From Chloroflexota bacterium (GTDB taxonomy: Bacteria > Chloroflexota > Anaerolineae > J036 > Brachytrichaceae): a stretch of 64,000 nt of DNA. The DNA lies in contig JAUQQA010000007.1 in the NCBI GenBank assembly GCA_030550095.1, forward strand, positions 1 to 64,000. Reading direction: 5' to 3'. The notes under the pieces were generated by a model that saw only the letters and a list, made by a program, of their open reading frames with translations, did no database searches and was not told where the DNA came from. Positions 59,280-63,594 of the stretch are shown one piece after another. Position numbers and translations under genes: made by a program. Position 1 is the first letter of the stretch; the number at the start of each line of letters is the position of its first letter.

Positions 59280-60587
59280 ATGCCGACGAACATCACCATG
59301 CCCCAAATGGGCTTTGACATGACCGAGGGCACTATCGCCGCCTGGCTGAAGAAGGAAGGCGATATGGTGACCCGCGGCGAGCCGATCGCTGAGATCGAGA
59401 CGGACAAGACCACGATCCAAATCGAGGCGTTTGCCAGTGGTGTGTTGCGCAAGATCATCGCGCAACCTGGGCAGCGCGTGCCCGTGGGCGAGGTGATCGC
59501 CATCATCGCCGAGCCAGGCGAGAACCTCGAAGAGAGCACGCCCGCGCCACCAGCGCAAGCTCAAGGGACGAGCGCACCTGCGTCTCAGCCGCCCACTGCC
59601 GCGCTGAACGCACCAGTAATTGCCAGCGGAACAGTGGTTGAGGGCGCGGACCGCATCATCGCCACGCCTGTCGCCAGGCGCATCGCCCAAGAGCATGGGA
59701 TCGATCTGCGCCTGGTGAAGGGTAGCGGACCCGAAGGGCGCATCACCAAGGCGGACGTGGAAGCCTTTTTGGCGACGATGCAGAAGCCCACACTGGCGGT
59801 GTCAGCCCCTGCGCCAGAACCCGCGCCGGCGCCTGCCTCTGTTGCACCAACGCCCATCGTGCCGCCCCAGCCCGTGCCTGCGCCGGCACCGAGCGGAGTG
59901 CCAGGCGCGAAGCAGCCGCTCACGCGCATGCGCCAAACCATCGCGGCGCGCATGGTGGCGAGCAAACAGCAGGTGCCACACTTCTACATCACCGTCTCTG
60001 TGGAGATGGACGCCGCGCTCGCGCTGCGCGAGCAGATCAACGCAGCGCTGAAGAGCGAAGGCGTGAAGGTCTCGATCAACGATATGGTGATCCGCGCTGC
60101 TGCGTTGGCGCTGCGCCGCTTCCCCAATTTAAACGCCTCGTTTGCGGGAGACGGCATCCAGCAACACAGCAGTGTGAACATCGGCGTGGCGGTGTCTGTG
60201 CCCGATGGGCTGGTGACGGTCACCGTGCGCGACGCAGACACAAAGTCGCTCAAGCAGATCAGCCAAGAGATGGTAGCGCTTGCGGCGCGCGCGCGCGAGG
60301 GAAAGATGCTCCCGAGCGACTATGGCGGGCAGACGTTCACCATCAGCAACCTCGGCATGTACGGCGTGGATAACTTCCTCGCCATTGTGAACCAGCCTGA
60401 CGCAGCGATCCTCGCCGTAGCAACCGCGCAGCCGATGCCGGTGGTGCGCGAGGGGCAGATCGTCATCCGCACCATGATGAACATGACGCTCTCGGGCGAC
60501 CATCGCGTCACCGACGGCGCAGAGGCGGCGCAATTCCTAAACGAGGTCAAGCGACTGCTTGAGAACCCTTGGGGGTTGGTGCTGTGA
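59280..60587 (+). CDS. pdhC: Dihydrolipoamide acetyltransferase (E2)
   Basis: 435 residues: one lipoyl domain (1-80, lipoyl Lys in EIETDKTTIQIEA), an Ala/Pro-rich linker, the E3-binding peripheral domain (about 125-160: ATPVARRIAQEHGIDL), a second linker and the catalytic domain (about 210-435) ending in SGDHRVTDGAEAA with the HxxxDG active site. It transfers the acetyl group to CoA and forms the complex core. No dihydrolipoamide dehydrogenase gene follows; E3 must be encoded elsewhere. Confidence 0.94.
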   Translation: MPTNITMPQMGFDMTEGTIAAWLKKEGDMVTRGEPIAEIETDKTTIQIEAFASGVLRKIIAQPGQRVPVGEVIAIIAEPGENLEESTPAPPAQAQGTSAPASQPPTAALNAPVIASGTVVEGADRIIATPVARRIAQEHGIDLRLVKGSGPEGRITKADVEAFLATMQKPTLAVSAPAPEPAPAPASVAPTPIVPPQPVPAPAPSGVPGAKQPLTRMRQTIAARMVASKQQVPHFYITVSVEMDAALALREQINAALKSEGVKVSINDMVIRAAALALRRFPNLNASFAGDGIQQHSSVNIGVAVSVPDGLVTVTVRDADTKSLKQISQEMVALAARAREGKMLPSDYGGQTFTISNLGMYGVDNFLAIVNQPDAAILAVATAQPMPVVREGQIVIRTMMNMTLSGDHRVTDGAEAAQFLNEVKRLLENPWGLVL

Positions 60588-60695
60588 GCTTCTAGTACGA
60601 GCTTGGCACTTCATGAGAGAACGTCTTTGTGCTTGACAAAAACCCTGTGCCTGAATCACCCCCGAGGAGGGTATAGCAGTAGGAGGAAAGAGCCA

Positions 60696-60836
60696 ATGAA
60701 GCGACGAGCTTTTTTTGGCAAGGATGCCGACTTCAAGCGCATCTTCGCGGAGTGGAAGAAGTTCAAAGAAGAGACTGACCGCTGGTTTGGCTTGAACGAG
60801 TACACGATGGAAAGCTATCTGTTTGGAAAGCTCTGA
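60696..60836 (+). CDS. 46-residue mini-gene: internally deleted copy of the TRAP binding protein
   Basis: Reading frame of 46 codons after AGGAGGAAAGAG. The first 6-8 residues (MKRRAFFG) equal the start of the TRAP binding protein encoded 179 bp downstream; the next 38 residues equal that protein's extreme C-terminus (30 of 38 identical). The middle of about 310 residues is missing, with the join at a T-rich tract. The flanks are parallel too: TTGACA (60633-60638), a similar ribosome site, and its own terminator. The -10 position looks degraded (TCACCC at 17-bp spacing). It is either a decaying remnant or an expressed micropeptide; it lacks the hydrophobic part of a signal and would stay in the cytoplasm. 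Confidence 0.7.
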   Translation: MKRRAFFGKDADFKRIFAEWKKFKEETDRWFGLNEYTMESYLFGKL

Positions 60837-60939: not shown

Positions 60940-60968
60940 TTGACAGAGTGGGCATTCTGCGATACAAA
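60940..60968 (+). promoter_or_regulatory. Sigma-70 type promoter of the TRAP binding-protein gene
   Basis: TTGACA (60940-60945), 17-bp spacer, TACAAA (60963-60968); leader about 40 nt with AAGGAGGAAG before the ATG at 61015. Confidence 0.75.
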
Positions 60969-61014: not shown

Positions 61015-62109
61015 ATGAAGCGACGAGCATTTTTGGGTTTGGCTGCGAAGGCGGCAGCTGCCGGCGCAGCCTCGACGGTGTTTGCGGCGCCGAACATCAT
61101 CATTGCGCAGCGGAACATTCGCTGGCAGATGGCGACGAGCTGGCCAACATCGCTGGACACCATCTACGGTGGTGCTCAGATTTTTGCTGAGCGCGTGGCT
61201 GCGCTGACAGGTGGGCGGTTTCAGATCACACCTGAGCCTGCGGGCAAGCTCTCCAAGGGCACAGATATTCTCGACGTGGTGCAGCAAGGCGCTGTGCCCA
61301 TTGGTCACACAGCCTCGTATTACTACGTCGGCAAAAGCCCAATCACAGCATTTGGAACAGCTCTTCCCTTTGGGATGACGCTTCGCCAGCAGAACGCCTG
61401 GCTGTATGAGGGGGGTGGTTTGCAGTTGTTGCAAGAGGTGTATCGGAAGAAGTTTGGGGTGATTCAGTTTCCTGCTGGGAACACGGGTGCGCAGATGGGG
61501 GGTTGGTTTAGGAAGGAGATCAAAAGCGTGGATGACTTGAAGGGGCTGAAGATGCGAATTCCTGGGCTGGGTGGTGAGGTGATGACGCGGCTTGGGGTGA
61601 CAGCGCAGAATCTGCCTCGGGGCGAGATTTTCCAAGCGTTGCAGACGGGCACGGTGGATGCGGCGGAGTGGGTAGGTCCCTATGATGATGAGAAGCTCGG
61701 CTTCTTCAAAGTTGCTAAGTTTTACTACTACCCAGGCTGGTGGGAGCCTGCGCCGACGCTCGAGGTCGAGGTCAACATTCGCGAGTGGGAGCGACTGCCG
61801 AAGGAGTATCAAGAGGCGATCAAGTCGGCGGCGGTTGAGGCGAACATGGGGATGATGGCGCGATATGATGCGCGCAACGCTGCGGCGCTGAAGAAGCTGC
61901 TTGATGCAGGTGTGCAGCTGCGCCAATACCCGAAGTCGGTGATTGACGCTGCGAAGAAGGTTGCTGATGAGATTTACGCCGAATTTTCAAGCAAGGACGC
62001 CGACTTCAAGCGCATCTTCACGGAGTGGAAGAAGTTCAGGGATGAGACGGGTCGCTGGTTTGGCTTGAACGAATATGCGATGGAGGGCTACTTGTTCGGC
62101 AACATGTGA
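61015..62109 (+). CDS. TRAP transporter solute-binding protein, DctP/TakP type
   Basis: 364 residues. The start [20 protein letters not shown] with twin arginines and a cleavage near VFAAPN indicates Tat export. The DctP fold follows: [65 protein letters not shown] and [17 protein letters not shown], characteristic of the TakP-like branch that binds keto- or other organic acids. The C-terminal helical tail is the part duplicated in the mini-gene. Codon choice in the middle (about 61380-61680; many GGG, TTT, TTG) is less GC3-biased than neighbours. The membrane subunits face it from the opposite strand. Confidence 0.93.
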
Positions 62110-62130: not shown

Positions 62131-62169
62131 AACAGAAACGACCTCCCAAGCTGGGAGGTCGTTTCTGTT
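62131..62169. terminator. Bidirectional terminator hairpin
   Basis: A perfect 18-bp inverted repeat (62131-62148 and 62152-62169) with a 3-nt loop AGC lies between convergent genes. The arms start AACAGAAACG and end CGTTTCTGTT, so each strand ends in a U-rich segment. Confidence 0.9.
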
Positions 62170-62199: not shown

Positions 62200-63594
62200 T
62201 CACGAAGTGCTGCCAAAAGCGACGCGCACAAGCCAATTCACCGTCTCGGGGAAGGCGATCACCAGCGCCAGCACGATGAGCTGAATGATCATGAAAGGAA
62301 TGGCGCTGCGGTGGATGTCCAGTGTGCTGATCTCCTTCGGCGCCACGCTTTGCAGGTAGAACAGCGAGAAGCCCACTGGCGGCGAGATGAACGCCGTTTG
62401 CAGGTTGACCGCGAGCACGATTGCGAGCCATGTCATGGTGTAGCCTTCTGTAGCGAACGCGCCAGCGGGGTTGAATTCGTTGAGCACGCGCTCCGCCGCG
62501 GGCACGATGAGCGGCATCGCAATGTAAGTAATCTCGGGAAACTCCAGGAAGATGCCCAACAAGAAGATCACAATGTTCACCACAATGACGAACGTCCAAA
62601 ATCCACCTGGAAGGCTCGCTAGCCACTCTTCGATCAGGTAGTCGGTGCCTAAGCCATAGAGCACCTTGGTGAAGAGCGTCGAGGCGAAGAGGATCATCAG
62701 CACCAGCCCGGTGGTCTTCGCGGTGGAGAGCGCTGCTTCGGCGATCACGCGGCGGTTGAGGCGCCGGTTCGCAAGGGCAAGCAACGCTGCACCGATGGCG
62801 CCGAAAGAACCCGCCTCGCTGGGCGTCGCCAAGCCAGCGAAGATCGTGCCGAGCACGGCGACGATCAAACCAACAGGCGGGACGAAGGCACGGATGGTGC
62901 GCAGCAACAGCCGCTTGCCGCGCACGCGCGCCTCAGGTGGCAATGCAGGTGCAAAGCCCGGGCGCAGATATGCCATGATCAGCGCGTATGCGGCGTAGCC
63001 GCCCGCGAGCATAAGCCCTGGGATGATCGCGCCGGCGAATAGGTCCCCAATCGAGACGCCGAACTGGTCGCTGAGCAGGATCAGCACGATGCTCGGCGGG
63101 ATCATTTGCGCCAATGTGCCCGAGGAAATGATCACACCTGTTGCCAAGCCCTTGTTGTAGCCATACTTGAGCATCGAGGGCAGCGAGATCAAGCCCATGG
63201 CGATGATCGTCGCGGCAACGACGCCTGTGGTGGCTGCGAGCAAGGTGCCAACGATGATCACGCCTAGCGCAATGCCCCCCTTCAGCGGGCCCATCAATTG
63301 CCCCATCGTCTCCAGCAGCTCCTCGGCAAGCCCAGAGCGCTCCAGCAGCGAGCCCATGAAGATGAAGAACGGGATCGCCAGCAGCGTGCTGTCGCTCATA
63401 ATGCCGAACCAACTGTTCGGCAAGCTGAGCAACAGGTTGAAGTTAAACGCATCCATCGCCAAGCCAATTAAGCCGAAGACGATGGCAGTGCCTGCGAACG
63501 AGAACGCCACAGGGTAGCCGCTGAGCAGCATGAAGAAGAAGCCTGCAAACATGATGATGCCCAGCAGCTGCGGGTTGAAGAACGATTCCTCCAT
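62200..63594 (-). CDS. TRAP transporter large permease (DctM)
   Basis: 464 residues with about 12 hydrophobic segments, full DctM length. Conserved segments include [98 protein letters not shown] and the C-terminal [20 protein letters not shown]. It carries the sodium-coupled transport step with the small permease. AGGAGGAG precedes the ATG. The binding-protein gene is downstream on the other strand. Confidence 0.95.

What the first reader, a model, noticed from the sequence alone, without database searches (positions are those of the whole stretch)
60696..60836. TRAP mini-gene made of the first 7 and last 38 codons of the neighbouring binding protein
Seen: an intact 46-codon frame with a good ribosome site and terminator, 30/38 identical to the C-terminus of the adjacent TRAP binding protein, and the same N-terminal MKRRAF start. 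It needs a tandem duplication followed by an in-frame deletion of roughly 310 codons. Known: TakP-family binding proteins form dimers by swapping a C-terminal helix. Inference: a peptide of just this tail could compete in that dimerisation or in folding, or it is a remnant kept open by chance. The divergence from the parent and the weakened -10 box show the event is not recent.
Basis: partly seen in the sequence, partly recalled or inferred. Interest (0 to 1): 0.75.

Follow-up and report, generated by a model that had tools for sequence, protein, structure and literature searches.

The report
Internally deleted TakP gene copy
A 46-codon open frame is what remains of a second copy of a transporter binding-protein gene after its middle was lost; it encodes just the parent's pairing helix, but nothing found here shows that the cell uses it, so it is most likely a fairly fresh relic.

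Summary
Window 60696-60836 is an open 46-codon frame: MKRRAFFG plus a 38-residue tail, 30/38 identical to the C-terminus of the adjacent TakP-type TRAP binding protein (61015-62109). It has a strong ribosome site and a 3' hairpin. The tail is almost exactly the C-terminal helix that TakP dimers swap: residues 326-365 in R. sphaeroides TakP, about 330-364 here. The modelled helix break is at 328 and the junction at 326/327. No equivalent mini-gene was found: not in sister species G002, which has the same takP-dctMQ locus, nor in 28 family, 396 class and 400 phylum genomes, nor in 80 named TakP loci. Tandem takP pairs are common, and a takP paralogue in G002 is already a pseudogene. Low pairwise dN/dS does not prove function, because most divergence can predate the deletion. 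A two-phase codon model allows about 0.13 neutral substitutions per codon after it, so the loss is either late or followed by constraint. The ancestral -10 box is missing, not weakened. The frame sits behind pdhC, whose own terminator is gone, so expression would come from pdh read-through. Best reading: a relatively recent in-frame deletion relic.

The parts
60633..60638 (+). TTGACA, the -35 element inherited from the takP promoter; the matching -10 (TACAAA) is missing, and slot 60656-60661 reads TCACCC
   Evidence: alignment with takP and G002 upstream regions
60681..60687 (+). Shine-Dalgarno AGGAGGA of the mini frame
   Evidence: sequence; shared with takP (repeat D2)
60696..60836 (+). 46-codon mini frame: 8 codons of the takP start plus 38 codons of its C-terminal (swapped) helix
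60863..60906 (+). hairpin AAGGCGAGC...GCTCGCCTT with U-rich tail; first terminator-like structure after pdhC
   Evidence: sequence and fold; not found by the scanner because of its long loop; fold energy not better than shuffles
60940..60968 (+). intact takP promoter-like site TTGACA-17-TACAAA, same layout in G002 and a related layout in family relatives
61015..62109 (+). takP, full-length TakP-type TRAP solute-binding protein, 364 aa
   Evidence: Pfam DctP 41-326, E 3e-65; PDB 2HZK, E 9e-103
61993..62106 (+). C-terminal helix region of takP (residues 327-364), source-type sequence of the mini tail
62131..62169 (+). 18-bp perfect inverted repeat behind takP
59280..60587 (+). pdhC (dihydrolipoamide acyltransferase, E2), upstream neighbour; its own terminator, present in relatives, is absent here
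62200..63594 (-). TRAP large membrane subunit (DctM type), convergent with takP as in G002
   Evidence: ORFs and DNA match

Best explanation
The frame is the remnant of a second takP copy that once stood in tandem with the present takP. One in-frame internal deletion of about 318 codons joined the start (codons 1-8) to the C-terminal helix (codons 327-364). The reading frame is still open mainly because the deletion is fairly late relative to the duplication and the frame is short. It may be translated from read-through of the upstream pdh operon, because the SD site is intact, but the product probably has no selected function. Shown: anatomy, homology, absence in the sister species and elsewhere, loss of the -10. 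Inferred: tandem origin, single deletion, lateness, lack of function.
For: Homology at both ends. The duplication is roughly as old as the genus divergence: mini tail dS about 0.7-1.0 to G002 and to takP, with takP-G002 body dS 1.2. Neutral time after the deletion is capped near 0.13 substitutions/codon (fall of about 2 lnL units), against a terminal branch of 0.6-0.9; within that cap a 46-codon frame stays open with probability roughly 0.4-0.7. No equivalent in G002, family, class or phylum, or 80 named loci. Tandem takP pairs are common substrates and a takP paralogue in G002 is a pseudogene. The promoter -10 is gone.
Against: All residues invariant among the compared tails are kept. Ribosome site, frame and hairpin are all intact. 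The 3' join falls almost exactly at the start of the swapped helix. No remnant of the deleted body and no second species carrying the intermediate was found, so the tandem full-length stage is inferred.
Confidence: 0.7

Rival explanations
1. The frame is a functional micro-peptide. The free C-terminal helix docks on the back of TakP in place of the partner's swapped helix, in the cytoplasm before Tat export because it lacks the hydrophobic part of the signal, and so tunes TakP dimerisation or folding; pdh-operon expression would couple ketoacid oxidation to ketoacid uptake.
For: The tail equals the swapped helix; the peptide alone is predicted helical at residues 9-34 with block pLDDT about 90; all invariant helix residues are kept; mini-branch omega estimate 0.03-0.04. 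TakP's signal looks twin-arginine (KRRAFL), so it could fold in the cytoplasm (inference).
Against: No ortholog found; own promoter lost; omega = 1 on the mini branch is rejected at best marginally (2dlnL 1.8-4.5); no expression data.
Confidence: 0.12
2. What is kept is not the peptide but its 3' hairpin: after the TRAP locus came to lie behind pdhC, the relic's terminator replaced the lost pdhC terminator and shields takP from pdh read-through; the frame is a passenger.
For: pdhC has a strong terminator of its own in G002 (z -3.2), and hairpins follow it in several family members; none lies in the 109 nt behind pdhC here (z +0.6), and the mini hairpin is the first one.
Against: Hairpin energy is not better than shuffles (z -0.5); no transcript data; compatible with the relic reading rather than exclusive.
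Confidence: 0.13
3. Assembly error: the join of start and tail is an artefact of collapsing two takP copies in a metagenome-assembled genome.
For: The genome is in 67 contigs and looks like a MAG; tandem repeats are hard to assemble, and an artefactual tail duplication was seen in another record (L098).
Against: The mini tail is only about 83% identical to the neighbour and has unique flanks on both sides, so it is not a collapsed copy of the same sequence.
Confidence: 0.05

Closest known systems
TakP (PDB 2HZK/2HZL, Rhodobacter sphaeroides; PMC1839085), helix-swapped dimeric TRAP binding protein
   Same: takP is a clear homologue over its full length; the mini tail is its swapped C-terminal helix
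   Different: the mini frame lacks the whole binding fold and the export signal; only the helix is left
Rpn proteins with intragenic RpnS (PMC10327210): a separately made C-terminal oligomerisation piece that blocks the full-length protein
   Same: would work alike if functional: a free C-terminal dimerisation helix of about 45 residues made beside its parent
   Different: RpnS comes from an internal start inside the gene, is widespread and experimentally shown; here it is a separate truncated paralogue in one genome without any test
Truncated gene relics from tandem duplication (general knowledge)
   Same: partial paralogue beside its parent, internal deletion, damaged promoter, absent in sister species
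   Different: this one still has an open frame, ribosome site and hairpin

Membership tests
TakP-type TRAP binding protein (DctP, PF03480) | DctP solute-binding fold | tested here: not met
   mini peptide: no Pfam hit; neighbouring takP: PF03480 at residues 41-326
TakP-type TRAP binding protein (DctP, PF03480) | long C-terminal swapped helix | tested here: met
   sequence match to 4YZZ 324-359; TakP 326-365 corresponds to takP about 330-364; AF2 helix 329-361 in takP (low confidence at the end) and 9-34 in the peptide
TakP-type TRAP binding protein (DctP, PF03480) | export signal | tested here: not met
   only MKRRAFFG remains; the hydrophobic stretch of the parent (codons 9-31) is deleted
Conserved functional small protein | orthologs kept across related species | tested here: not met
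   none in G002 nor in other genomes searched; G001 locus cut by contig end
Conserved functional small protein | purifying selection on the mini frame itself | tested here: inconclusive
   mini-branch omega 0.03-0.04, but 2dlnL against 1 is only 1.8-4.5 and the branch includes full-length time
Conserved functional small protein | transcribed and translated | not testable with these tools
   no RNA or ribosome data; SD present, promoter -10 absent
Dominant-negative dimerisation peptide (RpnS-like mode of action) | binds and blocks the full-length parent | not testable with these tools
   needs an experiment

The most novel reading that the evidence does not exclude
A free-standing swapped-helix peptide, born from a duplicated TakP gene and read from the pyruvate dehydrogenase operon, modulates dimerisation of its parent ketoacid binding protein.
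Probability: 0.08. Interest if true: 0.75.

Novelty: new member of a known kind. Interest (0 to 1): 0.3.

Why it matters
As a relic it is an ordinary trace of duplicate-gene loss, though unusually clean: the surviving codons are almost exactly one structural module. If the peptide were made and bound TakP, it would be a simple route from duplicate gene to dominant-negative micro-protein in bacteria, and would bear on why TakP dimerises at all, which the structure paper leaves open.

Tried and rejected
Pairwise dN/dS (0.05-0.08) as proof of function: rejected, because divergence includes time as a full-length gene. Conserved mini-gene in relatives: none found. An apparent orphan tail in Hydrocoleum (L098, 6084-6188) turned out to be a scaffold joint with an N that repeats the gene end. 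The orphan-looking tail G001:C43:3-143 starts at the contig edge and continues upstream as takP (DELYAEFSDKDADF), so it is probably a cut full-length gene. The short-frame tail G002:C13 belongs to a takP pseudogene. No Rfam element in the region. Tree order of mini, takP and G002 tails: mini+takP is favoured by 2.6 lnL but not firmly resolved. Paper search for bacterial truncated-paralogue microproteins gave nothing useful.

Full report
What is there. The frame at 60696-60836 reads [46 protein letters not shown] and stops at TGA. Searching the genome with the neighbouring 364-aa takP (61015-62109) returns three places: takP itself, a 69% paralogue on another contig (G000:C20), and this frame, E = 7e-17. 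DNA repeats show 128 nt at 82% (3' end) and 47 nt at 83% (ribosome site and start) shared with takP. The tail is 30/38 identical to takP 327-364. The most economical join is codons 1-8 to codons 327-364, so 318 codons are gone in frame.

What the parent is. takP is a TakP-type TRAP binding protein: PF03480 at residues 41-326, and R. sphaeroides TakP 2HZK matches at E = 9e-103. In TakP, residues 326-365 form a long kinked helix swapped between the monomers of the dimer, and all homologues in that study had it (PMC1839085). By alignment TakP 326 is takP 330. AlphaFold2 on takP, only moderately confident (mean pLDDT 66), puts a helix break at 328 and the last helix at 329-361. So the mini frame contains the whole swapped helix and almost nothing else. 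That a join falls within a few residues of a structural boundary is suggestive, but it was noticed afterwards and several boundaries would have counted, so I give it little weight. Alone, the peptide is predicted helical at 9-34.

Relatives. The genus has three held species. G002 has takP (87% identical) convergent with the dctMQ genes exactly as here, but an ilvD-like dehydratase gene, not pdhC, lies upstream, and there is no mini frame. G001's nearest homologue is cut by a contig end. A profile of the tail (A1) found no other free-standing tail in 28 genomes of the family, 396 of the class and 400 of the phylum, apart from the cut G001 tail and a G002 pseudogene, nor in 80 named TakP loci. 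Tandem full-length takP copies are common: pairs about 1.28 kb apart in many class members and three copies in G006.

Regulatory context. takP and G002 share TTGACA-17-TACAAA, and family members have TTGACA followed by CTAAAA. The mini frame keeps TTGACA but has TCACCC in the -10 slot, and the alignment suggests a short deletion there. In G002 a strong hairpin follows pdhC (z -3.2), and other family members have hairpins there too; in the window the 109 nt between pdhC and the mini frame hold no significant structure (z +0.6), and the first hairpin is that behind the mini frame. Any expression would then come from pdh read-through, and the relic's hairpin may now end the pdh transcript. This is inference.

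Selection and age. Pairwise, mini against takP has dS about 1.0 and dN 0.08; mini against G002 takP has dS 0.7 and dN 0.03. These low ratios date mostly from before the deletion if the copy was full-length. A codon model with a constrained phase followed by a neutral phase on the mini branch loses about 2 lnL units at roughly 0.13 neutral substitutions per codon (about 0.045 per site). So either the deletion is late on a branch of 0.6-0.9, or the mini frame stayed constrained. Thirty-seven codons cannot decide: omega on the mini branch is estimated at 0.03-0.04, but omega = 1 is rejected only at 2dlnL 1.8-4.5 depending on the tree. A 46-codon frame survives 0.03-0.05 neutral substitutions per site with probability about 0.4-0.8, with assumed indel rates. 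Nothing about its being open therefore demands function.

Verdict. A real, clean, singular internal-deletion product of a duplicated takP gene, most likely a relic that is still open because the loss is late. The dimerisation-competitor idea is structurally sensible, with RpnS (PMC10327210) as a bacterial precedent for the mode of action, but it lacks orthologs, a promoter of its own and any expression evidence.

Noticed in passing
window 60588-60695: The terminator that follows pdhC in G002 and several family members is missing; the TRAP locus now adjoins the pdh operon directly.
   Followed up: partly
L025 9989-11050 (G002:C13): A second takP paralogue in sister species G002 is a pseudogene, with a stop at the tryptophan of the TSWP motif, further stops and a scrambled middle; its counterpart in the window genome (G000:C20) is intact.
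   Followed up: partly
L022 4115-7661 (G006:C6): Three full-length takP genes in tandem in a family member; tandem pairs at about 1.28 kb also in many class members.
   Followed up: no
window 60940-60968: A TTGACA-17-TACAAA promoter-like site before takP is shared with G002, and TTGACA-CTAAAA before takP in genus g6, an unusually well kept promoter across a family.
   Followed up: partly
L098 5950-6200: Hydrocoleum record repeats the end of a takP gene across an N: a scaffolding duplication, not biology.
   Followed up: yes
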